Positions 3,375 to 21,330 of a stretch of 34,625 nt of DNA are shown piece after piece (position 1 is the first letter of the stretch; the number at the start of each line of letters is the position of its first letter). Under the pieces are notes generated by a model. That model worked only from the letters and a program-made list of their open reading frames with translations. It did not search any database and was not told where the DNA came from. Origin of the DNA: Flavobacteriia bacterium (lineage in GTDB: Bacteria; Bacteroidota; Bacteroidia; Flavobacteriales_D; Crocinitomicaceae); contig CANGHE010000005.1 in NCBI GenBank assembly GCA_947453545.1, positions 1-34,625 on the forward strand. Direction: 5' to 3'. The position numbers and the translations under genes were made by a program.

Positions 3375-4664
3375 TTATAAATTACTATTTGTATCAAATT
3401 GTTCTAAATAATCCCCTACTTTTCGTAAGAATGAACCTCCTAAAAATCCGTCCACCACTCTATGGTCGAAGGATAGAGAAAGATACATCATGCTTCTAAT
3501 AGCGATTTCGTCTCCTTTTGAAGTCGTAATAACTTCAGGACGTTTTTTTATAATTCCGAAAGCTAAAATGGCCACTTCAGGTTGGTTGATAATTGGTGTT
3601 CCCATCAAACTTCCAAAAGTTCCTACATTAGAAATGGTGAAGGTACTTCCTTGAATTTGTTCGGGTTTTAATTTGTTATTTCTAGAGGCTTCCGCCAAAG
3701 TATTTACATCTTTTGCTAAAGCAACTAAATCTTTCTCATTGGCATTTTTAACAACAGGAACGATTAAATTTCCTGATGGTAATGCAGTTGCCATTCCGAT
3801 ATTAATATCACTATGAACGATAATATTTTTTTCATCCACAGAAACATTAATCATTGGAAAATCAACAATCGCTTTGGCTACAGCCTGAACAAATACTGGT
3901 GTAAACGTGAGTTTCTCATTGTATTTTTGTTGAAACTTATCTTTATTTTCATTTCTCCAATTGACCAAATCAGTTACATCAACTTCAATGTAAGAAGTTA
4001 CATGTGGTGAAGTTTGCTTAGAATATACCATGTGATCGGCAATCATTTTGCGCATTCTGTCCATTTCGACTATTCTATCTTTTCCTTCTACAAAATTGAT
4101 TTTAGGTTTTGGATAAGAAGAAGTTGCAGGTTGTCGGTTATCGGTTATCGGTTTACTTTGAATAGGATATTTTCTATTTTTTAAATAATTAAAAACATCA
4201 CTTTTTTGCAAACGCCCGTCTGTTCCTGAACCAGAAATAGTTTGTAATTCTTGAATCGAAAGATTTTCCTTTTGAGCAATGCTTATTATTAATGGCGAAA
4301 TGAAAGCATTTGGATTGGTTGTCAGTTTTCGGTTGTCGGTTATCGGTTGTTGATTTTGTGATGTTGATTGAACTTCATTTTTCTCAACAGAAACATCTTG
4401 TTTCTTGTTTCTTGTTTCTTGTTTCCCATCAGCATCAATCAATGCCAAAACGGTTCCAACCTCAACAACGTCATCTTTCTGAAAACGAATTTCAGTTATG
4501 ACACCCGAAACTGGAGATGGTACGTCACTATCGACTTTATCGGTAGCGACTTCTAAAATAGTTTCTTCAGCTTCTACAAAATCACCTACGTTTTTCAACC
4601 AACTGATTATTGTTGCTTCAGATATACTTTCACCCATTTTGGGCATTTTGAATTCTGTTATCAT
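3375..4664 (-). CDS. Dihydrolipoamide acyltransferase E2 of a 2-oxoacid dehydrogenase complex
   Basis: N-terminal lipoyl domain (EVATDKVDSDVPSPVSGVI), peripheral subunit-binding domain (ISPLIISIAQKENLSIQELQTISGSGTDGRLQKSDV), C-terminal catalytic motif SFDHRVVDG. Confidence 0.9.
   Translation of the reverse strand: MITEFKMPKMGESISEATIISWLKNVGDFVEAEETILEVATDKVDSDVPSPVSGVITEIRFQKDDVVEVGTVLALIDADGKQETRNKKQDVSVEKNEVQSTSQNQQPITDNRKLTTNPNAFISPLIISIAQKENLSIQELQTISGSGTDGRLQKSDVFNYLKNRKYPIQSKPITDNRQPATSSYPKPKINFVEGKDRIVEMDRMRKMIADHMVYSKQTSPHVTSYIEVDVTDLVNWRNENKDKFQQKYNEKLTFTPVFVQAVAKAIVDFPMINVSVDEKNIIVHSDINIGMATALPSGNLIVPVVKNANEKDLVALAKDVNTLAEASRNNKLKPEQIQGSTFTISNVGTFGSLMGTPIINQPEVAILAFGIIKKRPEVITTSKGDEIAIRSMMYLSLSFDHRVVDGFLGGSFLRKVGDYLEQFDTNSNL
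4129..4156. repeat. Heptameric tandem array (GGTTRTC) x4 inside the E2 CDS
   Basis: GGTTGTC GGTTATC GGTTATC GGTTTAC; on the minus strand it encodes part of the linker KPITDNRQP. Confidence 0.8.
4317..4358. repeat. Heptameric tandem array (GGTTGTC-like) x5-6 inside the E2 CDS
   Basis: GGTTGTC AGTTTTC GGTTGTC GGTTATC GGTTGTT GATTTTG; encodes linker QPITDNRKLTTN. Confidence 0.8.
4398..4425. repeat. Perfect heptameric tandem array (TTGTTTC) x4 inside the E2 CDS
   Basis: TTGTTTC TTGTTTC TTGTTTC TTGTTTC; encodes KQETRNKKQ immediately after the lipoyl domain. Confidence 0.9.
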
Positions 4665-4735
4665 TTGTCTATAATGAGAAATTTATCTCAACTTTATAAA
4701 TAGTAAAAAAAATACTAAAATTATTGATGCATGAA

Positions 4736-4966
4736 TTAAAATCGAAAAAATATTCGTTTTGGCTTTATAATAATATTGCCAAATATTTTAAAAAAAAGCA
4801 CCAAAACTATTAATGGCAAAACAATTGGCGCAACAGTTTCAATCATCATCATTCCGTTTCCTGATGGAATTATTTTATATCTAATAATAATCAGAAAGAT
4901 TAAAATGATGTAAAATAACAACGTTAAAAATGCACTTTTATATTTTGGATTTTCTATTTTAATCAT
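4736..4966 (-). CDS. Small hydrophobic membrane protein, unknown function
   Basis: 76 aa ORF with two hydrophobic stretches (FLTLLFYIILIFLIII, IVLPLIVLVLFF); ATG start, lies between same-strand genes. Confidence 0.55.
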   Translation of the reverse strand: MIKIENPKYKSAFLTLLFYIILIFLIIIRYKIIPSGNGMMMIETVAPIVLPLIVLVLFFKIFGNIIIKPKRIFFRF

Positions 4967-4970
4967 TCAA

Positions 4971-5567
4971 TTATTTTTTCTTAAACTCTTCTAATGTCTT
5001 ATAAAACGCTTCTTGTGTTGGCCTGTCTTTTGGAATTTCTCGCAACGGTTCAACGGCTTTTAAGGTTTCGTAACACTCTTTTGGTAATTGTTGGTACAAG
5101 GCTGTTCCTTTAGTTTTCCAGCCTATCATTTCATCAGAAACGTCTTTTATAATTGTGGCTGGATTTCCAACGACCATTTTTCGATTCGGAATTTGCATTC
5201 CGGCTTTAACAAAACTTAAGGCTCCGATAATACATTCATCACCAATAGTAACATCATCCATAATCACCGCATTCATCCCTACCAAACAATTGGCTCCAAT
5301 ATTGGCTCCGTGAATAATCGCTCCATGACCGATGTGTGCTCCTGCTTTCAAAACCATGATCTTTCCTGGAAACATGTGAATCGTGCAATTTTCTTGAACG
5401 TTACAACCATCTTCAATGATGATTTCGCCCCAATCGCCACGAATGGCAGCACCAGGACCAACATATACATTTTTCCCAATAATCACGTTACCCGTAACCG
5501 CTGCTTGCGGATGGATGAAACTACTTTCGTGTATGACTGGGATGAAACCTTTGAATTCGTATATCAT
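4971..5567 (-). CDS. paaY: Gamma-carbonic anhydrase-like hexapeptide-repeat protein (PaaY family)
   Basis: 198 aa left-handed beta-helix hexapeptide repeats (AAVTGNVIIGKNVYVGPGAAIRGDWGEIIIEDGCNVQENCTIHMFPG, GHGAIIHGA). PaaY assignment rests on paa context. Confidence 0.8.
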   Translation of the reverse strand: MIYEFKGFIPVIHESSFIHPQAAVTGNVIIGKNVYVGPGAAIRGDWGEIIIEDGCNVQENCTIHMFPGKIMVLKAGAHIGHGAIIHGANIGANCLVGMNAVIMDDVTIGDECIIGALSFVKAGMQIPNRKMVVGNPATIIKDVSDEMIGWKTKGTALYQQLPKECYETLKAVEPLREIPKDRPTQEAFYKTLEEFKKK

Positions 5568-5580
5568 ATTTTTTTAGAAT

Positions 5581-5654
5581 ATAGATGAAAGAATATAGAA
5601 AATAGACTTAACCTCATTGTCTATATTCTATTCTCTTTTTTCTTTGCTCTCTTA
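5581..5654. repeat. Two heptameric arrays of opposite polarity in the paaY-enoyl-CoA hydratase spacer
   Basis: ATAGATG AAAGAAT ATAGAAA ATAGACT (5581-5608) facing TCTATAT TCTATTC TCTTTTT TCTTTGC TCTCTTA (5620-5654); arms partly reverse-complementary. Confidence 0.65.
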
Positions 5655-6404
5655 CTTAAATTTTTTCAACGTCTCTTTCGTAAAATCAGACAATACTAAT
5701 CGTCCGCTGATAGCGGCTCTTTCGGCTAATAGATTATCCCAATCCTCTGTTCCTCTCCAAAATACCTTTTTCATTTCGAGCATGGCTTCAGGGTTGTAGG
5801 TACATAAATGTTCGGCGAATTTTTGAACCGCTTCGTCCATTTCTTCAATTGATTCATACACATTGGCAAATAATCCTTTTTCTTTTGCCCAAGTTGCTTC
5901 GTAAAATGTGTTAGCGTCGATTGCGATTTGTGACATGGCAGAAACGCCCATTTTTCTTTCGATGGCTGGTGACACTACGAATGGTCCGATTCCAACGTTT
6001 AATTCTGATAGTTTAATTGCTGCGAATTTTGTCGCCATACAATAATCGGTTGACCCTGCAATTCCTACTCCGCCACCCACAGTTTTTCCTTGAATTCTTC
6101 CGATGATAAATTTCGGACATTTTCTCATGGCATTAATGACGTTAGCAAAACCAGAGAAAAATACTTTCCCAGTTTCGGCATCGTTGATAGCTATTAATTC
6201 TTTAAAACTAGCTCCTGCACAAAAAGTACGGTCGCCACCACTTTTTAGGATGATGACTTTAACTTGTGAATTATTTCCAACTTCAGTAATCGTATTGGCT
6301 AATTGCGCCAAAATATGACCTGGCAAAGAGTTTTGCTCAGGATGAAAAAACTCGATAGTGGCTATGTTGTTTTGTACTTGTTGTTTTACGTATGCTTCTG
6401 TCAT
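5652..6404 (-). CDS. Enoyl-CoA hydratase/isomerase family protein (PaaF-like by context)
   Basis: 250 aa crotonase fold (GGDRTFCAGASFKEL, GKTVGGGVGIAGSTDYCMAT) with paa neighbours. Confidence 0.8.
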   Translation of the reverse strand: MTEAYVKQQVQNNIATIEFFHPEQNSLPGHILAQLANTITEVGNNSQVKVIILKSGGDRTFCAGASFKELIAINDAETGKVFFSGFANVINAMRKCPKFIIGRIQGKTVGGGVGIAGSTDYCMATKFAAIKLSELNVGIGPFVVSPAIERKMGVSAMSQIAIDANTFYEATWAKEKGLFANVYESIEEMDEAVQKFAEHLCTYNPEAMLEMKKVFWRGTEDWDNLLAERAAISGRLVLSDFTKETLKKFK

Positions 6405-6420
6405 TATATACTTTGTCTTT

Positions 6421-6495
6421 TTATTGAAAATACCTGACAGCCACTGGCTGTCCTCCTTTTAATTTCAAATGTTTTACGTATGCTTCTGTTGACAT
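6421..6495 (-). other. 24-codon mini-ORF whose first codons duplicate the start of the downstream enoyl-CoA hydratase
   Basis: MSTEAYVKHLKLKGGQPVAVRYFQ*; the 20-bp sequence TGTTTTACGTATGCTTCTGT occurs at 6382-6401 and again at 6470-6489. Confidence 0.6.
6436..6452. repeat. Perfect 7-bp stem-loop GACAGCC-ACT-GGCTGTC
   Basis: Perfect inverted repeat with a 3-nt loop in the spacer between paaZ and the enoyl-CoA hydratase. Confidence 0.7.
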
Positions 6496-6500
6496 TGTCT

Positions 6501-6528
6501 TTTTTCTTTGTTCTTTATTCTTTTCTCT
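6501..6528. repeat. Heptameric T/C-rich array at the paaZ stop
   Basis: TTTTTCT TTGTTCT TTATTCT TTTCTCT, running into the paaZ stop codon (6527-6529). Confidence 0.55.
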
Positions 6529-9022
6529 ACAAAATTCCAAACTGTTCGAAATGATGGTTCAAATGCTTTCTTTCTAATAGATAAGAAGCGTATTTATTCA
6601 TTTCTCCAAATACCATATTCTTTAAAACAACTTCTGGGTTTTCTTTGAAAAAGGTTTTATATTGTTCTCTAGCTTCTAAAAACTTCGCCTTTGCTGTGGC
6701 AAAATCGGGATGAATCAAATCTTCCAATTCATCTTTTTTCATCGTTGGAAACTTGGTCCCCATTGGAAATTTGTCATAATTATATAACGAATTATGAACC
6801 TTATCCAAAATCTTTTCGGGTGTGGCAATTTCGAAATCTTGAATTTCACCCGACATGATTCGGTAGCCTTCCTCCAAATGTTCTAACAAATGTTGTGGTG
6901 TTAGAATTCCCCAATTTGGTTTTGAATTTTCGGTAAGTTTATTCAAACATTCGGTTATTTTTTCATCGGTCATTTCCACAAAAACTTCTTGTTTTTTCTG
7001 AACCATTGTTAGAATAGTCGCTACAGCTACCAATTCATCATTGGTATCAAACACCTCTACAAACCATTTTACAATGCCACTCGGGTGTTCGGCTGAAGCC
7101 ACATCTCTATCTACTTTTTGTTTGCACGTTAAACGCACGTACACCGTATCATTGTGGTAAATTGGTCGCAAGAAACGACATTCTTCCAATCCATAATTCG
7201 CGGCAACCGGACCTTTATTTGGATACACGAACAAACCTGCTGCTGCTGCTAAAATGAAGTAACCGTGCGCCGTTCGTTTTTTAAAAATACTACCATCTAG
7301 CGAAGTAATATCAGTATGAGCATAAAAATGATCCCAAGTGATATTAGCAAAATTAATAATATCAGTATCGGTAACTGTTCTATTATGAGTGCGCAATGAC
7401 ATTCCCGGTTGAATGTCTTCCCAATGGTATTGGAACGGATGCTGCGTTATTTCTTTATAAGCCGAATTCGCTTGATAAATTCCTGTAATTTCAGTCAAAG
7501 TGGTTGGCGAACCTTGAATAGCACAACGTTGCATATAATGTGTAATGCCTCGAACACCACCCATTTCTTCTCCACCTCCAGCACGACCCGGACCACCGTG
7601 AACTAACTGTGGTAATGGCGAACCGTGACCCGTACTTTGTTTGGCATTTTCTCTGTTCAACACTAAAATTCTTCCGTGATGCGATGCCGCATTGACTACA
7701 TATTCTTTGGCAATAGCATCCGAATTGGTAACAATTGATGATACCAACGAACCTTTACCCATTTGAGCTAGTTCAATAGCTTCATCCAAAGTTGCATAAG
7801 GCATTATGGTTGAAACCGGACCAAAAGCTTCGGTTTCGTGAACGGCTAAATTGGTAAACGGATGGTCTTCGCGAAGTAAAATCGGACTCACAAAAGCCCC
7901 TTTATCATCGGCACCAACCAACGTAATTTTTTCTAAATCTCCGTAAACTATTTTGGCCGATTTGGATAATGCTGTAACGCGTCCTTTCAACACCTCAACT
8001 TGGTCTTTACTCACCAAAGCTCCCATTCGAACTTCTTTCAACCTTGGGTCTCCAATAGAAACTTTATCCAATGATTTTCCTAGTGCCACTTGAACGTCAT
8101 CCATCAGCTTTTCTGGAACAATCATTCTACGAATAGCCGTACATTTTTGTCCAGCTTTTACAGTGATTTCACTTCGCGCTTGATTGATGAATAAATCAAA
8201 TTCTGGAGTTCCTGGAACCGCATCTTCGCCTAAAATAGAAGCATTCAAACTATCAGCCTCCATCGTAAAAGGTACTGATTCTTGAATTAATCTTGGATGT
8301 GATTTTAATAATCTTCCAGTTGTTGCCGAGCCTGTAAACGTAATCACATCTTGACTTTCCACCGTATCAAAAATAGTTGTAGCAGTACCACAAATCAATT
8401 GCAAAGCACCTTCTGGTAAAATATTTGACGCTATGATTTCTCTGACAACAGCTTCGGTTAAATAGGCTGTAACTGGAGCTGGCAATACAACTGCTGGCAT
8501 TCCAGCCATCCAATTGCAAGCACATTTCTCTAACATTCCCCATATTGGAAAATTAAAAGCATTGATATGAATAGCCACTCCTTTTTTCGGAACCAAAATA
8601 TGATGCGCCATAAAACGACCGCCTTTCGACAAATCGATTGGATCGCCTTCAACGTGATAGGGTTGGTTTGGGAATAATTTTCGCAACGATGCATTGGCAT
8701 ATAAATTTCCAAAACCTCCTTCAATATCAATCCACGAATCGACACGTGTTGCGCCCGTTCGGTAACTGATTTCATAGAACGCTTCTTTGCGTTTGGTCAA
8801 ATACATCGCCAAACTTTTAATCATATTGCCACGTTCTTGGAAGGTCATTTTGCGGAGTTTCTCGCCACCTTTAGTTCTTCCATAGTGCAAAATAGCCGGA
8901 ATATCTAAACCTTCCACCGACGTTTCCGCAATGAATTCGCCAGTTACCGCATCATAAGATGGTTTCCCATCTCCAGTTGCCGAAGTCCATTTTCCTAATA
9001 CGTAATGTTGTGTTTTAGTCAT
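6527..9022 (-). CDS. paaZ: Bifunctional PaaZ (oxepin-CoA hydrolase / 3-oxo-5,6-dehydrosuberyl-CoA semialdehyde dehydrogenase) with an extra C-terminal DUF1569-like domain
   Basis: 831 aa. ALDH domain (FTGSATTGRLL, KAGQKCTAIRRMIVP, HGGPGRAGGGEEMGG), MaoC-like hydratase domain (WDHFYAHTD, RTAHGYFI), then about 148 extra residues ending ERKHLNHHFEQFGIL. Confidence 0.92.
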   Translation of the reverse strand: MTKTQHYVLGKWTSATGDGKPSYDAVTGEFIAETSVEGLDIPAILHYGRTKGGEKLRKMTFQERGNMIKSLAMYLTKRKEAFYEISYRTGATRVDSWIDIEGGFGNLYANASLRKLFPNQPYHVEGDPIDLSKGGRFMAHHILVPKKGVAIHINAFNFPIWGMLEKCACNWMAGMPAVVLPAPVTAYLTEAVVREIIASNILPEGALQLICGTATTIFDTVESQDVITFTGSATTGRLLKSHPRLIQESVPFTMEADSLNASILGEDAVPGTPEFDLFINQARSEITVKAGQKCTAIRRMIVPEKLMDDVQVALGKSLDKVSIGDPRLKEVRMGALVSKDQVEVLKGRVTALSKSAKIVYGDLEKITLVGADDKGAFVSPILLREDHPFTNLAVHETEAFGPVSTIMPYATLDEAIELAQMGKGSLVSSIVTNSDAIAKEYVVNAASHHGRILVLNRENAKQSTGHGSPLPQLVHGGPGRAGGGEEMGGVRGITHYMQRCAIQGSPTTLTEITGIYQANSAYKEITQHPFQYHWEDIQPGMSLRTHNRTVTDTDIINFANITWDHFYAHTDITSLDGSIFKKRTAHGYFILAAAAGLFVYPNKGPVAANYGLEECRFLRPIYHNDTVYVRLTCKQKVDRDVASAEHPSGIVKWFVEVFDTNDELVAVATILTMVQKKQEVFVEMTDEKITECLNKLTENSKPNWGILTPQHLLEHLEEGYRIMSGEIQDFEIATPEKILDKVHNSLYNYDKFPMGTKFPTMKKDELEDLIHPDFATAKAKFLEAREQYKTFFKENPEVVLKNMVFGEMNKYASYLLERKHLNHHFEQFGIL

Positions 9023-9139
9023 AATAATAGTTTTTACTCTTGGCGAGGGTAGAGAAAAATAAGCGAGTAGTTTAGATAAACTTAAATTAAGTCCAAAACC
9101 TCAACCTTTCCACGCTGTTAATGGCTGCTATTTATTGTT

Positions 9140-10264: not shown

Positions 10265-10267
10265 ATT

Positions 10268-10849: not shown

Positions 10850-10953
10850 TTTATATATATATATATTTAGGAAGTTACCACTAACATTTCCAATTTAAAT
10901 AGATTAAAATCTACCTTTAAAATTTCATAATAATATATTCTTAATCAATTTGC

Positions 10954-10966: not shown

Positions 10967-10992
10967 ACTTATTTGAATATAAATAAAATTCT

Positions 10993-11349: not shown

Positions 11350-11397
11350 ATTCTTTCAATTTAAATACAATACTACAAAAATAGTTATTTACATCTT

Positions 11398-11640
11398 ACT
11401 TACATCGTCTGCTTCTTTACTTATGTTATCTGCTTCTTTACTTATGTCTTCTGCTTCTTTACTTATGTCTTCTGCTTCTTTACTTATGTCGTCTGCTTTT
11501 TTACTTATGTTGTCCGCTTCTTTACTTATGTCGTCTGCTTCTTTACTTATGTCGTCTGCTTCTTTACTTATGCCGTCTGCTTCTTTACTTATGCCGTCCT
11601 TTTCTTCACTTATGTCGTCCTTTTCTTTACTTATGTTGTC
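11398..11640. repeat. 21-bp minisatellite, 11 full copies plus a partial 12th
   Basis: Consensus ACTTATGTCGTCTGCTTCTTT; the ATG-equivalent recurs every 21 bp from 11402 to 11633. Minus strand reads (DDISKEA)n, plus strand reads (LMSSASL)n. Confidence 0.95.
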
Positions 11641-11671: not shown

Positions 11672-11706
11672 AACTCATAATTCATAACTCAAAACTCATA
11701 ACTATT
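11672..11706. repeat. Heptameric array (AACTCAT) x5 spanning the thiolase stop codon
   Basis: AACTCAT AATTCAT AACTCAA AACTCAT AACTATT. Confidence 0.85.
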
Positions 11707-12900
11707 CTCAATAATCGCCGCATAGCCTTGCCCAACGCCAATACACATAGTGATTAGCGCATATCGTTTTCCAGTTAATTGCAATTCCAATGCCGCCGAA
11801 TACACAATTCGAGCACCAGTAACTCCTAGTGGGTGCCCAATAGCAATAGCTCCTCCATTAGGATTAATTCTTGGATCGTTATCTTGTAATCCTAACTCCC
11901 GAATGCAAGCAATACTTTGTGCTGCGAAAGCTTCGTTAAGTTCAATAATATCGATTTGGTCAAGTGTTAAACCAGCTTTTGCCAACGCCTTTTTAGTCGC
12001 TTCCACTGGGCCAATTCCCATAATTCTTGGCTCTACTCCCACTACTGCCGAACTTACAATTCTCGCTAATGGTTTTAAATTATATTGTTGAACCGCTTCA
12101 GCAGAGGCAATAATGGTTGCCGCCGCACCATCATTCAATCCCGATGAATTTCCTGCCGTTACGCTTCCATCTTTTTTGAAAGCGGGACGCAATTTGGCTA
12201 ACCCTTCCATGGACGTACTTGGTTTTACAAATTCGTCTTTTGAGAATTGAATAGCATCTCCTTTTCGTTGCGGAATTTCAACGGTTACTATTTCTTTAGC
12301 CAATCTTCCTGAAACTTGTGCAGCAGTAGCTTTTTGTTGACTATGCAAAGCAAATGCATCTTGATCTTCACGAGAGATGTTGTATTTTTCTACTAGATTT
12401 TCGGCAGTTTCACCCATGGCATCCGTTCCAAACATAGCATGCATTTTTGGATTGATGAAACGCCATCCGAAACTCGAATCGTACATTTTAGAATCGGTTC
12501 CAAAAGCCGATGATGGTTTAGAAACCACTAATGGTCCACGGGTCATGTTTTCAATTCCACCTGCTATAAACACGTGTCCGTCGCCTGCTTTTATCGCTCT
12601 ATTGGCATGAATTATAGCTGACAATCCCGAACTGCACAAACGATTCACCGTTTCTCCCGGAACGGTATAAGGCAATCCTGCTAATAATAATGACATTCTC
12701 GCTACATTGCGATTGTCTTCTCCCGCTTGATTGGCACAACCCATGATCACGTCGTCATAAGCATCCGTTGGAATATTTGGATTATTTGCTACTACGGTTT
12801 TAATGACCAAAGCCCCTAAATCATCTGGGCGAACCGAGGCTAGTGTTCCTTGATAACTTCCGATTGGCGTTCGAACGCCGTCTATGATGTATGCTTCCAT
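11689..12900 (-). CDS. paaJ: 3-oxoadipyl-CoA / 3-oxo-5,6-dehydrosuberyl-CoA thiolase
   Basis: 403 aa thiolase (VNRLCSSGLSAI, GGIENMTRGPLV, NPNGGAIAIGHPLGVTGARI, ALITMCIGVGQGYAAI) within the paa cluster. Confidence 0.92.
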   Translation of the reverse strand: MEAYIIDGVRTPIGSYQGTLASVRPDDLGALVIKTVVANNPNIPTDAYDDVIMGCANQAGEDNRNVARMSLLLAGLPYTVPGETVNRLCSSGLSAIIHANRAIKAGDGHVFIAGGIENMTRGPLVVSKPSSAFGTDSKMYDSSFGWRFINPKMHAMFGTDAMGETAENLVEKYNISREDQDAFALHSQQKATAAQVSGRLAKEIVTVEIPQRKGDAIQFSKDEFVKPSTSMEGLAKLRPAFKKDGSVTAGNSSGLNDGAAATIIASAEAVQQYNLKPLARIVSSAVVGVEPRIMGIGPVEATKKALAKAGLTLDQIDIIELNEAFAAQSIACIRELGLQDNDPRINPNGGAIAIGHPLGVTGARIVYSAALELQLTGKRYALITMCIGVGQGYAAIIENSYEF

Positions 12901-12901
12901 T

Positions 12902-12973
12902 TAGGTATTGGGTATTAGGTTGTGGGTTTTAGGTTAAACTTCATAAATCAAAAATCTTCAATCGTTAATTTTA
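12902..12973. repeat. Two consecutive heptameric arrays in the paaI-paaJ spacer
   Basis: TAGGTAT TGGGTAT TAGGTTG TGGGTTT TAGGTTA (12902-12936), then AATCAAA AATCTTC AATCGTT AATTTTA (12946-12973). Confidence 0.8.
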
Positions 12974-13399
12974 TTCTTCCCACTCTTTGTTTGTTCTGTA
13001 AACTACACCTTTAAAAAGTGCAACTAATTCATCTTTTTGACTTTCGACTTTCGACTTTCGACGAACCTCAATGATATTGAATCCTAATTTATTATTTACT
13101 TTTTCGATAACTGATTCAGCGGTTAGATAATCACCTTCATTTACTACTTCAATATGATTGATGGAAGTTTCGATGGAAACCGAAAACCGTCCATGTGTAT
13201 TGGCTGCAAAACCAAAAGCGGTGTCTGCTAATGAATAGGTTATTCCTCCATGTGCTTTGTTCATACTGTTGAGCATCTCTTTGCGAACAGTCATAGCGAC
13301 TTTGCAACGACCAATTTCGCATTCAAGAATTTCGATGCCGAGCCATTGGCTGTAAGCATCTTGAGAAAGCATTTTGTATGGTATTTTTGTCCCTTCCAT
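12971..13399 (-). CDS. paaI: Hotdog-fold thioesterase PaaI
   Basis: NKAHGGITYSLADTAFGFAAN motif. ORF-track start at 13426 overlaps paaH; the ATG at 13399 (MEGTKIPYKML...) starts right after the paaH stop (13401-13403) and is preferred. Confidence 0.85.
   Translation of the reverse strand: MEGTKIPYKMLSQDAYSQWLGIEILECEIGRCKVAMTVRKEMLNSMNKAHGGITYSLADTAFGFAANTHGRFSVSIETSINHIEVVNEGDYLTAESVIEKVNNKLGFNIIEVRRKSKVESQKDELVALFKGVVYRTNKEWEE
13041..13061. repeat. Perfect heptameric array (CTTTCGA) x3 inside the paaI CDS
   Basis: CTTTCGA CTTTCGA CTTTCGA preceded by TTTTTGA; encodes RRKSKVESQK. Confidence 0.9.
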
Positions 13400-13400
13400 T

Positions 13401-14549: not shown

Positions 14550-14550
14550 A

Positions 14551-15336
14551 TTAATTACCTTTAAATTCGGGTTTTCTTTTTTCCACGAATGCTGTTACTC
14601 CTTCTTTGTAATCGTTGGATGAACTGGCTTCAATTTGCAAATCACTTTCTAAAACCAATTGTTGTTCTAAATTATTGGTCATTGATTGATTCAATAATCT
14701 TTTGGTTAAACCTAATGCCTTAGTAGGCATGTTGGCTAAAGTTGTTGCCAATGTCATTACTTCTTCATTAAAAAAAGATGTCGGATAAATTTTATATATC
14801 ATACCTATTTGAAGTGCTTCTTCGGCGTTCACTTTGTCTCCAAGCATCATTAAAGCAGTTGCTTTTTGAAAACCAATTAATCTAGGTAAAAAGAAAGTTC
14901 CAGCACTATCCGGTATTAATCCGATTTTACTAAACGCTTGTATAAAACTAGCGTGTTCAGAAGCTACAACTATATCACAAGCCAAAGCAATATTCGCTCC
15001 TGCACCAGCTGCTACTCCGTTTACTGCTGCAATTATTGGTTTTTCAATTGTTCTTATTTTTTGGATTATTGGATTGTAGTGTTCTTCCAATATTTTTCTA
15101 AAACCTGGATTTAAATCTGGGTCGGTTACTTCTTTTAGGTCTTGTCCAGCACAAAAAGCTTTTCCGTTTCCGGTAATTACTATTGCACGGACATTTATAT
15201 CGTTTTCACAATTATCTAAAGTTTCTTGTAACAGAAAAGCCATTTCACGATTGAAACTATTAAAAACTTCGGGTCTGTTCAGTGAAATCCATGCTACGCC
15301 ACTTTCAATTTTTAATTCAATTGAATTATTGCTCAT
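14551..15336 (-). CDS. paaG: 1,2-epoxyphenylacetyl-CoA isomerase PaaG
   Basis: 261 aa crotonase: GKAFCAGQDLKEV, VNGVAAGAGANIALACDIVVASEHASFIQAFSKIGLIPDSAGTFFLPRL, ending EGVTAFVEKRKPEFKG. Confidence 0.92.
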   Translation of the reverse strand: MSNNSIELKIESGVAWISLNRPEVFNSFNREMAFLLQETLDNCENDINVRAIVITGNGKAFCAGQDLKEVTDPDLNPGFRKILEEHYNPIIQKIRTIEKPIIAAVNGVAAGAGANIALACDIVVASEHASFIQAFSKIGLIPDSAGTFFLPRLIGFQKATALMMLGDKVNAEEALQIGMIYKIYPTSFFNEEVMTLATTLANMPTKALGLTKRLLNQSMTNNLEQQLVLESDLQIEASSSNDYKEGVTAFVEKRKPEFKGN

Positions 15337-15351
15337 ACCTATTTTATTTAA

Positions 15352-15424
15352 GATTGAAGATTAACGATTTTAGAAGTATAGAAATCTTAAATCAAAATTC
15401 AACAATCAGCAATCGTTAATCTTA
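15352..15424. repeat. Opposite-polarity heptameric arrays forming a perfect 13-bp inverted repeat
   Basis: GATTGAA GATTAAC GATTTTA (15352-15372) and AATCTTA AATCAAA ATTCAAC AATCAGC AATCGTT AATCTTA (15383-15424); AAGATTAACGATT (15357-15369) pairs with AATCGTTAATCTT (15411-15423). Confidence 0.88.
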
Positions 15425-15925
15425 TTATTTTAAACATTTAAAGTAGTCGAAGGGTTCTAAGCAATCTTCGCATTGGAAAAATGCTTTACATGCTGTGGAA
15501 CCAAATTGACTTACTAATTTTGTGTTCAATGAGCCGCATTGCGGACATTTCACTAATTTTTTATTGCCTAGAAGCGCTTCTTTATCAGCTGATTCAGATA
15601 ATGGAGAAGCAATTCCATATTTTTCTAAAGCTATTCTGCCTTTTGATGTTATCCAATCGGTTGTCCATGCCGGTGAAAGAATTAAATCCACTTTGGCTTC
15701 ATAACCTTTTTGTTGGAATGCTTCTTTAATATCGTCTCCTATGACATCCATTGCTGGGCAACCGCTGTAGGTTGGAGTGATTTCTACTTCAACAATTCCG
15801 TTTATTAGTTTGGCAGAACGAACTACTCCCATTTCCACTATAGAAAGTACTGGAATTTCAGGATCGGAAACCGTTTCCAGAATTTCGAATAGTTTTTGGT
15901 CGATATGTATTTTTTCTTCTGTCAT
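15425..15925 (-). CDS. paaD: Phenylacetyl-CoA epoxygenase accessory protein PaaD (MIP18/DUF59 family, Cys-rich C-terminus)
   Basis: VSDPEIPVLSIVEMGVVR, TPTYSGCPAMDVI, CPQCGS...FGSTACKAFFQCEDCLEPFDYFKC. The ORF-track start at 15937 is a GTG; ATG at 15925 (MTEEKIHID) is preferred. Confidence 0.92.
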   Translation of the reverse strand: MTEEKIHIDQKLFEILETVSDPEIPVLSIVEMGVVRSAKLINGIVEVEITPTYSGCPAMDVIGDDIKEAFQQKGYEAKVDLILSPAWTTDWITSKGRIALEKYGIASPLSESADKEALLGNKKLVKCPQCGSLNTKLVSQFGSTACKAFFQCEDCLEPFDYFKCLK

Positions 15926-16022
15926 TTTTTTAACCACAAAGAGCGCAATGATTTACACAAAGTTCGCAACAATTTTACTATATTTCTCTCAAAAGTGCAA
16001 AGGCACTATTTTTACTAATCAA

Positions 16023-16049
16023 ACTGAAAACTGCCACTGAAAACTGAAT
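16023..16049. repeat. Heptameric (ACTGAAA-like) array in the paaC-paaD spacer
   Basis: ACTGAAA ACTGCC ACTGAAA ACTGAAT (7,6,7,7). Confidence 0.65.
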
Positions 16050-16054
16050 ACTTA

Positions 16055-16807
16055 CTACCAAGTCATGTTGGGATACGTGCGTTGCATGTACTGCAATTCT
16101 GTTAGAATAAAGCCCATGTGCTCACTATGAACGCCTTGTTTTCCTCCTTTTTGGAAATATTCAATTGAAGGTGTTTGCAATGTAGCTTCTTCTAAAATGC
16201 TACTTACTTTTTTATAATAGTTTATTTTTAAAAGTGTAACATCAACTCCTATCCCTTCTGCAATCATAGCTTTATCAGCATCGGTTTGATGGAATAATTC
16301 GTCAGTAAAAATCCACAAATCATTAATCGCAGTTTGGATTCTGTTGTGACTTTCTTCAGTTCCATCACCTAATCTTTTAATCCAATCTGAAGAAAATCTC
16401 GTATGATATAACACTTCTTTAATACTTTTTTTAGCAATTGCAGCCAACATTTCGTCTTTGCTTTTTTGCAATTCTTCTAATAATGCCAAATGAAACACGT
16501 CAAACAAAAATTGACGTGTAATAGAATAACCAAAATCAGTGTTCGGTTGTTCTACTAAAAGTACGTTTTTATACTCTCTTTCCAATCTAAGGAAAGCCAC
16601 AGTATCTTCATTAGCACCATTACCTTGCAATTTTGCTACATATTGAAAATAACTACGTGTTTGCCCTAATAAATCAAGGGAAATATTGGTTAAGGCGATA
16701 TCGGTTTCAATGCTTGGTCCATGACCACACAATTCTCCTAAACGCTGGCCAAGAATCAATGAGTTATCTGCAATTCCGTAGATGTATTGAATTAAATTAT
16801 TGTTCAT
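16055..16807 (-). CDS. paaC: Phenylacetyl-CoA epoxidase structural subunit PaaC
   Basis: 250 aa: GIADNSLILGQRLGELCGHGPSIETDIALTNISLDLLGQTRSYF, SEHMGFILTELQYMQRTYPNMTW. Confidence 0.93.
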   Translation of the reverse strand: MNNNLIQYIYGIADNSLILGQRLGELCGHGPSIETDIALTNISLDLLGQTRSYFQYVAKLQGNGANEDTVAFLRLEREYKNVLLVEQPNTDFGYSITRQFLFDVFHLALLEELQKSKDEMLAAIAKKSIKEVLYHTRFSSDWIKRLGDGTEESHNRIQTAINDLWIFTDELFHQTDADKAMIAEGIGVDVTLLKINYYKKVSSILEEATLQTPSIEYFQKGGKQGVHSEHMGFILTELQYMQRTYPNMTW

Positions 16808-16815
16808 TTTGTTAA

Positions 16816-16899
16816 GGTTGTAGGTTGTAGGTTGTAGGTTGTAGGTTGTAGGGCTTTTAAATTTCCCTAAATCCTAATACCCAAATCCTAACACCTAAT
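16816..16899. repeat. Heptameric arrays of opposite polarity filling the paaB-paaC spacer
   Basis: (GGTTGTA)x5 perfect at 16816-16850, then CCCTAAA TCCTAAT ACCCAAA TCCTAAC ACCTAAT at 16865-16899. Confidence 0.92.
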
Positions 16900-17180
16900 T
16901 ACATGTGTTTTAATTCGTCAGGCAATTCATAAAACGTAGGATGACGATACGCTTTGTCCATTGCTGGTTCAAAAGTTTCTCCATTGTTTTCAGGATTGGT
17001 TGCTGTGATTTGAGCTGATGGTACAACCCAAATGCTAACACCTTCCATACGACGTGTGTATACATCGCGAGCATTTTCTAATGCCATTGTTGCATCACTT
17101 GCATGAAGTGAACCGCAATGACGGTGCTCTAATCCGTTTTTACTTCTTATAAATACTTCCCAAAGTGGCCAGTTTTTCAT
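16899..17180 (-). CDS. paaB: Phenylacetyl-CoA epoxidase subunit PaaB
   Basis: 93 aa: WPLWEVFIRSKNGLEHRHCGSLHASDATMALENARDVYTRRMEGVSIWVV. Confidence 0.94.
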   Translation of the reverse strand: MKNWPLWEVFIRSKNGLEHRHCGSLHASDATMALENARDVYTRRMEGVSIWVVPSAQITATNPENNGETFEPAMDKAYRHPTFYELPDELKHM

Positions 17181-17194
17181 AATATTTGAGTTTT

Positions 17195-17245
17195 CAGTCG
17201 CAGTCGCAGTTGGCAGTCTGAATACTGTAAACTGCGACTTTCGAC
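17195..17245. repeat. CAGTCG/CAGTTGG short repeats with a 10-bp inverted partner in the paaA-paaB spacer
   Basis: CAGTCG CAGTCG CAGTTGG CAGTCTG, with AGTCGCAGTT (17202-17211) pairing to AACTGCGACT (17230-17239). Confidence 0.75.
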
Positions 17246-17248
17246 TAT

Positions 17249-18205
17249 TTATATTGCTAGTTTTACTTCTTTATTTTCTTGTTTTTCGGCGAAAGCCATT
17301 GCGGCATCACGAACCCATTTACCGTCTTTGTGGGCTTTTACTCTTGCATCGATTCTTTGTTTGTTGCAAGGACCGTGGCCTTTTACAACTTGCCAAAATT
17401 CGTTCCAATCGATATCGCCAAAATCATAATGTTTTCTTTCTTCGTTCCATTTTAATTTGGAATCAGGAATAGTTAATCCTAATATATTGGCTTGTGGCAC
17501 CGTTTGATCTACGAAAGCTTGACGCAATTCGTCGTTGGTTTTTCGTTTCAATTTCCATTTTACAGACTGCTCTGTATTAGGAGAATCGGCATCACGAGGT
17601 CCAAACATCATTAAAGACGGCCACCACCAACGATTGATAGAATCTTGTGCCATTTCTTTTTGTTCAGGAGTTCCATTACAAAGTGTCAAAAGAATTTCAT
17701 AACCTTGACGTTGATGAAAACTTTCTTCTTTACAAATACGAACCATAGCACGTGCGTAAGGGCCATAAGATGTTCCCATCAAAGCCACTTGATTCATAAT
17801 TGCTGCACCATCAACCAACCAACCAACTGTACCCATATCTGCCCATGTAACAGCAGGATAATTAAAAATACTAGAATACTTGGCTTCTCCTGAATGCAAT
17901 TGTTCTATTAATTCGTCACGAGAAATCCCAAGAGTTTCCGCAGCACTATATAAGTACAATCCGTGTCCACCTTCGTCTTGAATTTTAGCCAATAAGGCTA
18001 CTTTTCTTCGCAATGAAGGCGCGCGAGTAATCCAATTCCCTTCAGGCAACATTCCAACAACTTCTGAATGGGCATGTTGTGAAATCTGACGAATATGCGT
18101 CTTGCGATACTTTTCGGGCATCCACTCTTTTGGTTCAATTTTTTCGTCGCGAGCAATTCGTGCTTCGAAAATTTCTTCTAAACTTTTCACTTCTTTTTCT
18201 GACAT
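17249..18205 (-). CDS. paaA: Phenylacetyl-CoA epoxidase catalytic subunit PaaA
   Basis: 318 aa: [68 protein letters not shown]. Confidence 0.95.
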
Positions 18206-18239
18206 AACTTTTTTCTGTTATTAAATTCAGGTTTATATT

Positions 18240-19313
18240 TTACAATCCGAAATCAACTACTACTTTTTTAGAAGTAGGCACGGCTTGACAACTTAATACA
18301 TAATTTTTCGCTAATTCATCTGCTTCTAATGAATAGTTTAATTTCATTTCAACCGAACCATCCACAACTTTACAACGGCAAGTACTACAAACACCCCCTT
18401 TGCAAGCATAAGGTAAATCAGCGCCAGCGGCAATCGCTCCATCCAATAGGGTGTCGAAATCCTGACCCATTACAAAGTGGAATTCTTTTCCGCCATCAAT
18501 AATAGTGACTTCTGTTCCTTCAACTTTTTTAGCTACGATATTTTTTATTCTTTGTTTGTCTGCTTCCGAAAGTCCTGTTGTAAACAATTCGTAATGAATG
18601 TTATCTTTAGATAAACCCGCATTTACTAATTCGTCACGCAACAAGAATATCATATCTTCTGGACCACATATAAAACATTCATCTGTAGATGGAATATCAA
18701 TGATTTTATCTGTCAATACTTCGATTTTTTCTTTTGTAAATCTTCCATTAAACAATTCCGAAGAACGGTGTTCTTTAGTTAAGAAATAAAAGATTTCAAA
18801 ACGATTGAAATACACGTTTTTCAACTGCTCTATTTCCTCTTTAAAGATAATTGATTTTACAGTGCCGTTTAAATAAAACAATTTAAAAGTGCTATTTGGT
18901 TCAGACGCTAAATGGGTTTTAATAATAGAAAGTATAGGTGTAATTCCACTTCCAGCAGCAAATGCAATATAGTTTTTTGCCTTTGTAGGATTGACTTCGG
19001 TAAAGAACGCTCCATTTGGAGGCATAACATCCAATGTGTCGCCTATTGCTAATTGTTCATTTACAAAAGTAGAGAATAATCCTTCGTTTATTTGTTTAAC
19101 GGCTACTTGCCATTTATTTTCTATAGGGCTAGAACATAACGAATAGGAACGACGTACTTCGTTGCCTTTGATATTGGTTCTTAGCGTTAAATGTTGTCCT
19201 TGTTTGTATTGAAATTCCGACTGCAATGCGGAAGGAACATCGAATGTAATTACAGAACAATCATTTGTTTCTTTATAAATATCAGCGACTTTAAAGCTAT
19301 GAAATTTTGACAT
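18240..19313 (-). CDS. paaE: Phenylacetyl-CoA epoxidase reductase subunit PaaE
   Basis: 357 aa: FNR-type domain (RRSYSLCSSP, AAGSGITPILSIIKT) plus plant-type 2Fe-2S motif CKGGVCSTCRCKV. Confidence 0.94.
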   Translation of the reverse strand: MSKFHSFKVADIYKETNDCSVITFDVPSALQSEFQYKQGQHLTLRTNIKGNEVRRSYSLCSSPIENKWQVAVKQINEGLFSTFVNEQLAIGDTLDVMPPNGAFFTEVNPTKAKNYIAFAAGSGITPILSIIKTHLASEPNSTFKLFYLNGTVKSIIFKEEIEQLKNVYFNRFEIFYFLTKEHRSSELFNGRFTKEKIEVLTDKIIDIPSTDECFICGPEDMIFLLRDELVNAGLSKDNIHYELFTTGLSEADKQRIKNIVAKKVEGTEVTIIDGGKEFHFVMGQDFDTLLDGAIAAGADLPYACKGGVCSTCRCKVVDGSVEMKLNYSLEADELAKNYVLSCQAVPTSKKVVVDFGL

Positions 19314-19331
19314 ATAATTCTATTTAGATCA

Positions 19332-19349
19332 AACTAACAATTGTTAGTT
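19332..19349. promoter_or_regulatory. Perfect 18-bp palindrome, candidate TetR operator in the paaE promoter
   Basis: AACTAACAA|TTGTTAGTT, between the paaE start (19313) and a -7 element. Confidence 0.75.
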
Positions 19350-19356
19350 AAACATG

Positions 19357-19364
19357 CAAATTTA
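19357..19364 (-). promoter_or_regulatory. Bacteroidota-type -7 element TAAATTTG for paaE
   Basis: Minus strand TAAATTTG fits TAnnTTTG, directly upstream of the palindrome. Confidence 0.55.
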
Positions 19365-19402
19365 ATGATTTTTTTTATACATTACGAAAACGTTGTAATT
19401 TT

Positions 19403-19972
19403 TTAAACAATTCCGTTTAATAGAACTTTAATCATATTGTCTGTCAATGCCTTTGAGCTTAATTTATTTGTTTTATTATACCAAATATATAATGTTCTAA
19501 GCGTAGATAAAATTGAGAAAATAATTACATCAAGATTATAATTTTTAATTTCACCATCTACAATTCCTTTTTCCATTATAGTTCTGAAATTATCTTCATA
19601 ATCATTTCGCATTTTTATAAAATAATCCAAATCAGAATCTGTTAAGTGCATCCAATCATTATTCAAACACGCTAGTGCATTCGAATCTCGAAGAGTAATA
19701 TCAATATGCAGTTCAATTATTCGCTCAATTTTCTTAATCGCTGAATCATTTGAATTTACCACCTCCCTCATTACGTTAGTAAACTCTTCAGCAATTTCAA
19801 TAACAATTAAAACAAGAATTTCTTGTTTTGATTTAATATGATTGTATAAACTTGCTGCTTTTATATCTAATATTTGTGCAATATCGCGCATAGTTACAGC
19901 GCTGTATCCTTTTTCTTTAAAAAGTTTAGCAGCTACATTTATAATTTCTTGTTTTCTATCGGAAATCTTCAT
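19403..19972 (-). CDS. TetR/AcrR family regulator, probable paa regulator
   Basis: 189 aa: KQEIINVAAKLFKEKGYSAVTMRDIAQILDIKAASLYNHIKSKQEIL HTH; adjacent to paaE. Confidence 0.88.
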   Translation of the reverse strand: MKISDRKQEIINVAAKLFKEKGYSAVTMRDIAQILDIKAASLYNHIKSKQEILVLIVIEIAEEFTNVMREVVNSNDSAIKKIERIIELHIDITLRDSNALACLNNDWMHLTDSDLDYFIKMRNDYEDNFRTIMEKGIVDGEIKNYNLDVIIFSILSTLRTLYIWYNKTNKLSSKALTDNMIKVLLNGIV

Positions 19973-19979
19973 TCGATTT

Positions 19980-19987
19980 CAAATATA
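19980..19987 (-). promoter_or_regulatory. Bacteroidota-type -7 element TATATTTG for tetR
   Basis: Minus strand TATATTTG ends 7 nt before the ATG region, implying a very short leader. Confidence 0.5.
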
Positions 19988-20005
19988 AAGATTTTTTTGA
20001 CTTGG

Positions 20006-20019
20006 GTAACTTTTGTTAC
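20006..20019. promoter_or_regulatory. Palindrome GTAAC-TTTT-GTTAC, second candidate TetR operator
   Basis: Shares the TAAC-N4-GTTA core with the paaE palindrome; lies between divergent tetR and rhodanese genes. Confidence 0.6.
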
Positions 20020-20041
20020 AACTTTACAGGTAGTAAATCAT

Positions 20042-20049
20042 TAATTTTG
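20042..20049 (+). promoter_or_regulatory. -7 element TAATTTTG for the rhodanese gene
   Basis: Matches TAnnTTTG, 28 nt upstream of the ATG at 20077. Confidence 0.5.
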
Positions 20050-20076
20050 CTTTAGAAATCAGAAAAATAAAAAAAA

Positions 20077-20385
20077 ATGGGACTATTAAGTATATTAGGA
20101 ATAGGTGGAAAATCAGAAAACGTTAATGACTTTGTTAACAAAGGTGCTGTTATAATTGATGTAAGAACACCCGCTGAATTTCAAGGTGGTCATATTAAAG
20201 GGTCTAAAAACATTCCATTAAATACAATTTCATCCAAAATAAATGACTTAAAAAAATTAAACAAACCTGTTATTGCTTGTTGTGCTAGCGGAATGAGAAG
20301 TTCTCAAGCAACATCCATATTAAAAAGCAATGGTATTGACGCTATGAATGGTGGAGGTTGGAGTAGTTTAGAAAACAAATTGTAA
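20077..20385 (+). CDS. Rhodanese-like domain protein
   Basis: 102 aa: GAVIIDVRTPAEFQGGHIKGSKNIPL, active-site loop CCASGMRS. Confidence 0.9.
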   Translation: MGLLSILGIGGKSENVNDFVNKGAVIIDVRTPAEFQGGHIKGSKNIPLNTISSKINDLKKLNKPVIACCASGMRSSQATSILKSNGIDAMNGGGWSSLENKL

Positions 20386-20388
20386 TTT

Positions 20389-21330
20389 CTAAAAATTCAT
20401 AAATGGGTATTTTAGTTGAATTTCACGTATTTTAACTAAAATAGTTTGTTTGAATTTTAAATGGCTTTCGGATTCAAAATTGAATGGTCTGTGAGCCATA
20501 GCTTTTTGAATATTGTTAATTTCAGCCATAGTATCAAGGCTAACTTTAGAAATTGCTATTGCTTCGAAACGTTCCCAAATATAATCAATAGCAATTTGAT
20601 TCGGATGCAACATATCTTCAGCATAAAATCTATAATCTCTAAGTTCGTCCATCACGATTTCATAACTTGGAAAATAGCTATGGATTGTGAATTTTGGATT
20701 GTGAATTGCCGTAATTAAATGAGATTTGCTTCTTTGATTTTCTACAAAACCATCTTTGAGATGGCGAACGGGAGAAACTGTGAAAATAAAATTACAATTA
20801 GGATTAATTTTTTGTATTAAAGCAATAGTATTTTCAATTGATTTTTCAATAACTGAAACAGTTAAAATTTCTTTTATAAATTGATTTTGAGATACCTTAT
20901 GACAATTGGCAACCACCTGATTGGTAGTTATATTTCTATAAACCCAAGATGACCCATAAGTAATTATTAGATGTGTTAACTGGGATATTTGTCCATTTAC
21001 TGTATCTAAAATTGAATTTAAATTACTTAATAATTCCTTTTTGTTAGAATTAGAAAATTCCGAATGAACTTCAAAACAATGCCATAGTTCATTATGAAAG
21101 AAAATATCTTGTTCTGTAAAATATCTCTTTTTAACGACCCGAGTAAGTACATTTTCAATCGAAATTGGGTTAAAAATAATTCCAAATGGATTTACGATTG
21201 TTCTAAATTTATAAAAATTAAATTTAGTTCCAATTTTATCAGCAAAACAAGATCCTATAAGTAGAATTGAAGCGCTATAATCAATTGGATGTATTGATTT
21301 AGAGATAGGTATCTTTGTAGAAAATATCAT
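20389..21330 (-). CDS. GSCFA domain protein
   Basis: 313 aa: ILLIGSCFADKIG (GSCFA motif), NPFGIIFNP, FTVSPVRH, YFPSYEIVMDELRDYRFYAEDMLHPN. Confidence 0.9.
   Translation of the reverse strand: MIFSTKIPISKSIHPIDYSASILLIGSCFADKIGTKFNFYKFRTIVNPFGIIFNPISIENVLTRVVKKRYFTEQDIFFHNELWHCFEVHSEFSNSNKKELLSNLNSILDTVNGQISQLTHLIITYGSSWVYRNITTNQVVANCHKVSQNQFIKEILTVSVIEKSIENTIALIQKINPNCNFIFTVSPVRHLKDGFVENQRSKSHLITAIHNPKFTIHSYFPSYEIVMDELRDYRFYAEDMLHPNQIAIDYIWERFEAIAISKVSLDTMAEINNIQKAMAHRPFNFESESHLKFKQTILVKIREIQLKYPFMNF
20681..20708. repeat. Heptameric (14-bp super-unit) array inside the GSCFA CDS
   Basis: TGGATTG TGAATTT TGGATTG TGAATTG; encodes IHNPKFTIH. Confidence 0.75.

What the first reader, a model, noticed from the sequence alone, without database searches (positions are those of the whole stretch)
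4129..20708. A family of degenerate heptameric (period-7) tandem arrays with locus-specific units
Loci read directly: 4129-4156 GGTTRTC, 4317-4358, 4398-4425 TTGTTTC, 5581-5608 ATAGAAA, 5620-5654 TCTATTC, 6501-6528, 11672-11706 AACTCAT, 12902-12936 TRGGTWT, 12946-12973 AATCNNN, 13041-13061 CTTTCGA, 15352-15424, 16023-16049 ACTGAAA, 16816-16850 GGTTGTA, 16865-16899 NCCTAAN, 20681-20708 TGGATTG/TGAATTT. The unit differs each time but the period stays 7, across spacers and coding sequence. The closest analogue I know is the heptameric STRR elements of heterocystous cyanobacteria; I do not know a formal description in Flavobacteriia. Constant period with varied sequence suggests a recurrent generating process (slippage with a fixed register, template-directed synthesis or recombination) rather than copies of one mobile element. 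This is the best candidate here for an undescribed system.
Basis: partly seen in the sequence, partly recalled or inferred. Interest (0 to 1): 0.82.

Follow-up and report, generated by a model that had tools for sequence, protein, structure and literature searches.

The report
Swappable seven-base-repeat hairpins between genes
The seven-base repeats are real, and most are the two matching arms of RNA hairpins that fill the gaps between genes of one Flavobacterium operon; close relatives carry hairpins built from quite different seven-base units in the same gaps, so the gaps are swapped whole while the hairpin is kept.

Summary
In window 4001-21000, period 7 gives 10 strong segments against 0.13 in shuffles; 13 of the 15 listed loci are well above chance (12946-12973 and 16023-16049 are weak). 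In 520 orthologous spacers of the phenylacetate (paa) operon from about 80 Bacteroidota loci, 166 are period-7 against 2.3 shuffled, and no period outside 7/14/21 comes near. Most arrays are arms of intercistronic hairpins: 136 of 151 heptad spacers fold as one hairpin, starting about 3 nt after the upstream stop codon and ending about 14 nt before the next start codon, where an A-rich Flavobacterium-type start region begins. The arms fit each other, not foreign arms. Units come from a recurring repertoire (AACCGAC, AACCTAC, AAAGTCG...). Whole hairpins are replaced: at PaaA|PaaB the family changes at least 29 times among 54 taxa, and among genomes 93-95% identical 57% of intra-operon spacers are replaced, while the promoter spacer is conserved. 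Copy number changes by 7 nt. No RAYT or reverse transcriptase association. Heptamer excess as such is already described; the hairpin architecture and whole-module turnover appear not to be. The window contig is mis-binned in its assembly.

The parts
17181..17248 (-).
   Evidence: MFE -27.4, z -7.2; 18-pair consensus held in 12 sequences
16865..16898 (-). PaaB|PaaC spacer, left arm (TTAGGTG TTAGGAT...), G/U-rich, directly after the PaaB stop
   Evidence: identical in L022
16816..16853 (-). PaaB|PaaC spacer, right arm (CCTACAA)n, A/C-rich, next to the PaaC start; one more unit in relative L022
   Evidence: 28/28 period-7 matches; hairpin z -3.6; +7 nt in L022
15337..15424 (-). PaaD|PaaG spacer: hairpin of the GATTAACG/AATC family; L022 and L023 carry two other modules at this site
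   Evidence: z -3.5
16020..16054 (-). PaaC|PaaD spacer: orphan left arm (TCAGTTTTCAGTGGCAGTTTTCAG), no right arm
   Evidence: no hairpin, z 0.6
12901..12970 (-). PaaI|PaaJ spacer: chimera of a GATT-type left half and a CCTAAA/CCTACAA-type right half; arms do not pair
   Evidence: z 0.1; same chimera in L022
13035..13062 (-). in-frame heptads (GTCGAAA)n near the 3' end of PaaI
11672..11706 (-). left-arm-type heptads (GAGTTAT)n across the PaaJ stop codon; a 2.7-kb stretch follows before PaaZ in the window
   Evidence: 22/28 matches
5568..5651 (-). ech2|PaaY spacer: hairpin of the AGAATAT/TCTATTC family (left arm 5620-5651, right arm 5576-5608)
   Evidence: z -4.1; same family at ech2|PaaY and PaaY|E2 in relatives
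6495..6528 (-). PaaZ|ech2 spacer: degenerate AAAGAAT/AAAGAAC heptads, no paired arm
   Evidence: score 17
4121..4156 (-). in-frame heptads (AACCGAT) in the E2 (lipoyl-dependent acyltransferase) inter-domain linker
4317..4358 (-). in-frame heptads (AACCGAC/AACCGAT) in an E2 linker
4396..4425 (-). in-frame heptads (GAAACAA)n in the first E2 linker
   Evidence: 21/21 matches; other units at the same linker in relatives
20681..20708 (-). in-frame heptads in ORF o313 (20389-21330), at the spot (nt ~632) where other species carry CTTCCAA, AATTATC, ACTTTCG, CCTACAA, AACCGAC etc.

Best explanation
Most heptad arrays are arms of intercistronic mRNA hairpins in a long, SD-less Flavobacterium operon. Shown: the hairpin (predicted fold) starts about 3 nt after the upstream stop codon and ends about 14 nt before the next start codon; helices of mostly 2-7 bp alternate with small symmetric internal loops that recur every 7 nt; the A/C-rich arm adjoins the start codon; the arms fit each other in each species although the unit is quite different; arrays change length by 7 or 14 nt; whole modules are replaced by others of a limited, genus-wide repertoire without the flanking gene ends moving with them; modules within one genome resemble each other more than modules of different genomes at non-orthologous sites. 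Inferred: (1) replication slippage with a preferred step of 7 nt makes and homogenises the arrays, the right arm being the more regular at loop positions; (2) modules are copied between spacers within a genome by an unidentified, rather short-tract process (gene conversion or non-autonomous transposition); (3) selection keeps a module if it folds up the intercistronic RNA, leaves the A-rich start region free and lies in the right orientation. The likely job is to tuck away the spacer, separating the end of one cistron from an open start region for the next, perhaps also protecting the message. In coding sequence only stop-free A/C-rich units survive, in flexible linkers.
For: Period 7 in 166 of 520 spacers against 2.3 shuffled. 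Exact runs in all loci and samples: 180 at period 7, 2-16 at periods 5, 6, 8, 9, 10. 136 of 151 form one hairpin of >=12 bp (median 22 bp over the 151); offsets 3 nt (IQR 1-5) and 14 nt (IQR 9-16); arm composition G .233/C .095 left, G .095/C .247 right. Own arm duplex -20.6 against -6.7 kcal/mol with foreign-unit arms; own better than 95% of foreign in 88%. Loops mostly symmetric (227 of 1x1, 76 of 2x2); period-7 identity at loop positions .41 left arm.62 right arm. Codirectional spacers 161/764, convergent 0/50, divergent 2/90; operon promoter spacer 0/54. Leader A peaks at -12/-11, -6, -3, as in F. johnsoniae (A at -12/-13, -6, -3; low pairing -20 to +20; PMC6847099). Turnover: bimodal, 57% replaced at 93-95% CDS identity, promoter control 0% replaced; >=29 family changes at PaaA|PaaB; flanks of same-family pairs not more alike (p 0.72), and resemblance above threshold at different sites 11.7% within a genome against 3.5% between. 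Gap lengths 7 (12x) and 14 (2x) stand out. Exact arrays A/C-rich on the coding strand 114, G/T-rich 20.
Against: Not all arrays pair: the window's PaaI|PaaJ spacer is a chimera that does not fold, PaaC|PaaD holds an orphan arm, and arrays in E2 and o313 mostly have no partner. The same spacer can be 1-4 nt long in other species, so the hairpin is not needed for expression. Non-heptad spacers fold well too (median z -2.3 against -3.4), so hairpin formation is not special to heptads. Pairs and loops come from predicted folds, so paired-position statistics are partly circular. Within the ACTGCG family only 1 of 18 pairs shows a two-sided change. Heptads are 3-4 times rarer elsewhere in the genomes than in the paa operon, unexplained. 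No enzyme for copying was found.
Confidence: 0.6

Rival explanations
1. Plain heptamer simple-sequence repeats: a polymerase that slips preferentially by 7 nt makes arrays wherever sequence is tolerated, and the hairpins are a by-product of inverted duplication with no function.
For: Heptamer SSRs are over-represented in many bacteria and a 7-nt polymerase contact was proposed (Mrazek 2007, cited in PMC4679880 and PMC4692102). Indels of 7/14 nt. Arrays also in coding linkers without partner arm.
Against: Does not explain fixed orientation (114 to 20), absence from convergent and promoter spacers, fixed offsets to stop and start, arms that fit each other across very different units, or whole-module replacement by recurring families.
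Confidence: 0.22
2. A non-autonomous mobile element family (REP/REPIN- or MITE-like) moved by a transposase such as a RAYT, with arms that happen to be heptads.
For: Dispersed families with conserved cores, empty and filled sites, several modules in tandem, higher resemblance within genomes.
Against: No Y1 transposase match in heptad-rich genomes G009/L036, G020/L060, G024/L066, G025/L068, G026/L069 (some are incomplete MAGs); no target-site duplication noticed by eye; at least seven unit families share one geometry; near-fixed orientation to transcription.
Confidence: 0.12
3. Arrays are binding sites for an RNA-binding translation regulator, as proposed for TAACTGA heptamers upstream of start codons in Beggiatoaceae.
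For: Position just upstream of start codons, forward orientation, A/C-rich repeats that are single-stranded when the hairpin is open; similar placement in PMC4679880.
Against: 67 distinct exact units and replacement of the unit at the same gene argue against sequence-specific binding; TAACTGA arrays were not predicted to form structure by themselves, these are.
Confidence: 0.04
4. Intrinsic terminators or attenuators between cistrons.
For: Stem-loops just after stop codons.
Against: Only 1 of 111 has 5 or more T in a row within 10 nt after the hairpin, the leader is 52% A, and the element lies inside an operon next to the following start codon.
Confidence: 0.02

Closest known systems
Heptanucleotide simple sequence repeats / LSSRs (Mrazek et al. 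2007; Xanthomonas and Nostoc GGGAATC-type repeats, PMC4692102; STRR of Calothrix)
   Same: Period 7, tandem, intergenic, copy-number change by whole units; some inverted pairs noted in Xanthomonas
   Different: Here many units in one genus, organised as paired arms of intercistronic hairpins, with replacement of the whole element at orthologous spacers
TAACTGA direct repeats of Beggiatoaceae, Cyanobacteria and some Bacteroidetes (MacGregor 2015, PMC4679880)
   Same: Heptamers in fixed orientation just upstream of start codons, also within ORFs; found in Gramella, Aequorivita and Elizabethkingia, where other heptamers accompany them
   Different: One unit per network, no predicted hairpin by itself; here many units and complementary arms
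REP/BIME and REPIN elements of enterobacteria and Pseudomonas
   Same: Intercistronic stem-loops, multicopy, dispersed families
   Different: No single conserved palindrome shared by the families, heptad-built arms, fixed orientation, no RAYT association
Flavo-1 RNA (Rfam RF01705)
   Same: Dispersed structured element in spacers of the same operon
   Different: No Rfam hit on any heptad hairpin; Flavo-1 is one of the modules that share these spacers

Membership tests
Heptameric simple sequence repeats (SSR/LSSR) | Tandem 7-nt units in excess of chance, other unit lengths not | tested here: met
Heptameric simple sequence repeats (SSR/LSSR) | Length change by whole units between relatives | tested here: met
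   gaps of 7 (12) and 14 (2) among 75 same-site pairs
STRR of heterocystous cyanobacteria | The particular cyanobacterial heptamers and host group | tested here: not met
   operon and relatives are Flavobacteriaceae; the cyanobacterial unit sequences themselves were not searched
TAACTGA repeats | Unit TAACTGA | tested here: not met
   cyclic unit AACTGAT is not among the 60 commonest of 67 exact units
TAACTGA repeats | Forward orientation, close to a downstream start codon | tested here: met
REP/REPIN with RAYT | Presence of a Y1/RAYT transposase in carrying genomes | tested here: not met
   several heptad-rich genomes have no PF01797 match; MAG incompleteness is a caveat
REP/REPIN with RAYT | One conserved palindrome in many copies per genome | tested here: inconclusive
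   families with unrelated units share one geometry; genome-wide copy number per family not measured
Intrinsic terminator | Hairpin followed by a T-run | tested here: not met
   1 of 111
Intercistronic structured RNA | Arms co-vary between species | tested here: met
   own against foreign arm duplex; base-pair covariation within one family is slight
Intercistronic structured RNA | Structure formed and functional in cells | not testable with these tools
   needs probing and reporters

The most novel reading that the evidence does not exclude
Flavobacterium operons use an exchangeable set of 'spacer cassettes': sequence-unrelated but structurally equivalent heptad hairpins that are swapped whole, in fixed orientation, between stop and start codons by a dedicated unidentified copying process, serving as translation-start insulators in bacteria without Shine-Dalgarno sequences.
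Probability: 0.25. Interest if true: 0.85.

Novelty: new variant of a known kind. Interest (0 to 1): 0.62.

Why it matters
It turns a vague excess of 7-nt repeats into a defined, testable architecture: hairpins of fixed geometry that persist while their sequence is replaced at least 29 times at one spacer. That offers a natural experiment on what an intercistronic region must do in bacteria without Shine-Dalgarno sequences, and a tractable place to ask why slippage prefers 7 nt and what copies short modules between spacers.

Tried and rejected
Chance: rejected by shuffles. Decayed copies of one transposon: rejected, many unrelated units. Long-tract recombination between species carrying the spacer: flanks of same-family pairs are not more similar; short tracts not excluded. 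Reverse transcriptase (PF00078) and Y1/RAYT (PF01797) as makers: absent from several heptad-rich genomes. Known RNA family: none at the heptads. Terminators: no T-run. Sampling the window's own assembly for genome-wide excess was misleading because the contig is mis-binned. Plain autocorrelation over crude intergenic regions of G000 gave only weak signals. Spacer-length bimodality was looked for and is not clear.
Full report
CHECK OF THE OBSERVATION. Within 4001-21000 period 7 gives 10 segments of score 12 or more and period 14 gives 9, against 0.13 each in shuffles; the other periods tested between 5 and 15 give none. Two of the 15 (12946-12973, 16023-16049) are weak alone. The window is a phenylacetate-degradation operon with neighbours, all on the minus strand (PaaA 17249-18205, PaaB 16899-17180, PaaC 16055-16807, PaaD 15425-15937, PaaG, PaaH, PaaI, PaaJ 11689-12900, PaaZ, an enoyl-CoA hydratase, PaaY, an E2 acyltransferase; families scored, the rest named from gene order). 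The arrays lie in its intercistronic spacers and in a few coding linkers.

THE CONTIG IS MIS-BINNED. PaaC of the window is 98% identical to Flavobacterium-type MAGs but only 53-60% to the best copies of most congeners of its nominal assembly G000. G000 holds another PaaC on C121. Two 3-kb probes from other G000 contigs have no real match in the 98% relative (weak negatives, as no positive control was in the set). Period-7 statistics on the rest of G000 (one exact run in 395 kb) therefore say nothing about the window's organism.

COMPARATIVE SET. PaaC brought in 80 loci from Flavobacteriaceae and other Bacteroidota with up to 10 kb on each side; a few record titles name other groups (L058, L060, L062), although these loci fall inside the Flavobacterium tree. 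In 520 orthologous spacers (51.5 kb) period 7 reaches score 12 in 166 against 2.3 shuffled; 14 and 21 follow as harmonics; no other period exceeds 15. Exact runs with 11 or more matches: 180 at period 7, 2 to 16 at periods 5, 6, 8, 9 and 10. The spacer before the operon's first gene, TetR|o357, has none in 54 (that it bears the promoter is inferred). Over the loci, 161 of 764 codirectional spacers, 0 of 50 convergent and 2 of 90 divergent ones hold heptads. Outside paa, in samples of F. aquatile, F. filum and the L022 genome, 15 of 248 codirectional spacers do: genome-wide, but 3-4 times less dense than in this operon, which I cannot explain.

ARCHITECTURE. Of 151 heptad spacers 136 fold as one hairpin of at least 12 bp (median 22 bp over the 151), beginning a median 3 nt after the stop codon and ending a median 14 nt before the next start codon. 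Helices of mostly 2-7 bp are separated by symmetric internal loops, and unpaired positions recur at lags 7 and 14. The left arm is G/U-rich and the right arm A/C-rich; exact arrays are A/C-rich on the coding strand in 114 cases and G/T-rich in 20. The arms fit each other and not those of other units: -20.6 against -6.7 kcal/mol. At loop positions the left arm is hardly periodic (.41) while the right arm is (.62), as if the right arm were the tandem array and the left arm held only by pairing (inference, since pairs come from the predicted fold). Between hairpin and start codon lies an A-rich stretch with A peaks at -12/-11, -6 and -3, the signature of F. johnsoniae initiation regions, which lack Shine-Dalgarno sequences and are little paired from -20 to +20 (PMC6847099). 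T-runs are missing, so these are not ordinary terminators. In the window, four heptad-bearing spacers fold clearly (17181-17248, 16808-16898, 15337-15424, 5568-5651); 12901-12970 is a chimera of two families' halves and 15938-16054 has an orphan left arm.

UNITS AND TURNOVER. Units are not arbitrary: identical cyclic units occur at different sites in 2.1% of between-genome and 6.3% of within-genome comparisons, against 0.23% for letter-shuffled units. Families such as ACTGCG, CTTTCGA, ACTGAAC, AATTATC and TCTATTC recur at different spacers, nearly always in one orientation, and so do AACCGAC and CTACAAC. At PaaA|PaaB the family changes at least 29 times on a tree of 54 taxa (shuffled mean 35.8; families assigned by eye). 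Replacement is stepwise: at 93-95% coding identity 34% of intra-operon spacers are conserved, 57% replaced and only 9% intermediate, while the promoter spacer stays conserved in all 8 comparable pairs. The window, L022 and L023, about 95% identical, carry three different modules at PaaD|PaaG. Flanking gene ends of same-family pairs are not more alike than expected (p 0.72), so long-tract recombination between species is not supported, and modules at different sites resemble each other more within a genome. Gaps between similar same-site modules stand out at 7 and 14 nt. So two processes seem to run side by side: slippage by 7 nt within arrays, and replacement of whole modules by an unknown short-tract copying process.

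CODING ARRAYS. In the E2 linkers and at one spot (nt ~632) of the ORF at 20389-21330, different species carry different stop-free A/C-rich heptads in frame. These mostly lack a partner arm, which shows that array formation does not need the hairpin, and argues that pairing is a selected use of arrays rather than their cause.

ENZYMES. Y1 transposases (PF01797) and reverse transcriptases (PF00078) are missing from several heptad-rich genomes. No maker has been identified.

WHAT IS KNOWN. Heptamers as the most abundant long SSR class in most genomes, with a 7-nt polymerase contact suggested as cause, are attributed to Mrazek et al. 2007 in PMC4679880; PMC4692102 describes G-rich heptamers in Xanthomonas and Nostoc; PMC4679880 describes TAACTGA heptamers just upstream of start codons, also in some Bacteroidetes. 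I found no description of paired heptad hairpins with whole-module replacement, but the held library lacks most subscription journals. I therefore file it as a new variant of a known kind.

LIMITS. Gene ends come from tblastn and simple ORF calls; many loci are MAG contigs; folds are predictions; sequences are related, so counts are not independent. Function (start-region insulation, perhaps mRNA protection) is inference.

Noticed in passing
window 1-34625 (G000:C5): The contig appears to be a Flavobacterium contig mis-binned in assembly G000, which has another PaaC on contig C121.
   Followed up: yes
window 11396-11640: A separate 21-bp x 11.7 tandem array (TTACTTATGTCGTCTGCTTCT) inside a 2.7-kb stretch between PaaJ and PaaZ; the three ORFs of that stretch (o118, o193, o374) had no match in the relatives' loci.
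   Followed up: no
window 12901-12970 and L022 PaaI|PaaJ: Chimeric spacer made of the left half of one hairpin family and the right half of another; it does not fold.
   Followed up: partly
L053:18675-18752, L054:18572-18649, L045:18139-18216 and others: Flavo-1 RNA (RF01705) lies in the same operon spacers, scored on the strand opposite to transcription.
   Followed up: no
paa spacers of relatives, e.g. L049, L050, L054, L099: Other recurring non-heptad modules: CTTTGCG-type repeats before start codons, the ACCTGCAAGGTTTTCAAAACCTTGTAGGT palindrome, and CCCCTCCTTTGGAGGGG...GGGCGGGG.
   Followed up: no
L023 and L038 (one MAG, G043): One MAG carries two different PaaC loci (98% and 86% to the window), which suggests contamination or two operons.
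   Followed up: no
paa operon against the rest of Flavobacterium genomes: Heptads are 3-4 times denser in codirectional spacers of the paa operon than elsewhere; cause unknown.
   Followed up: partly
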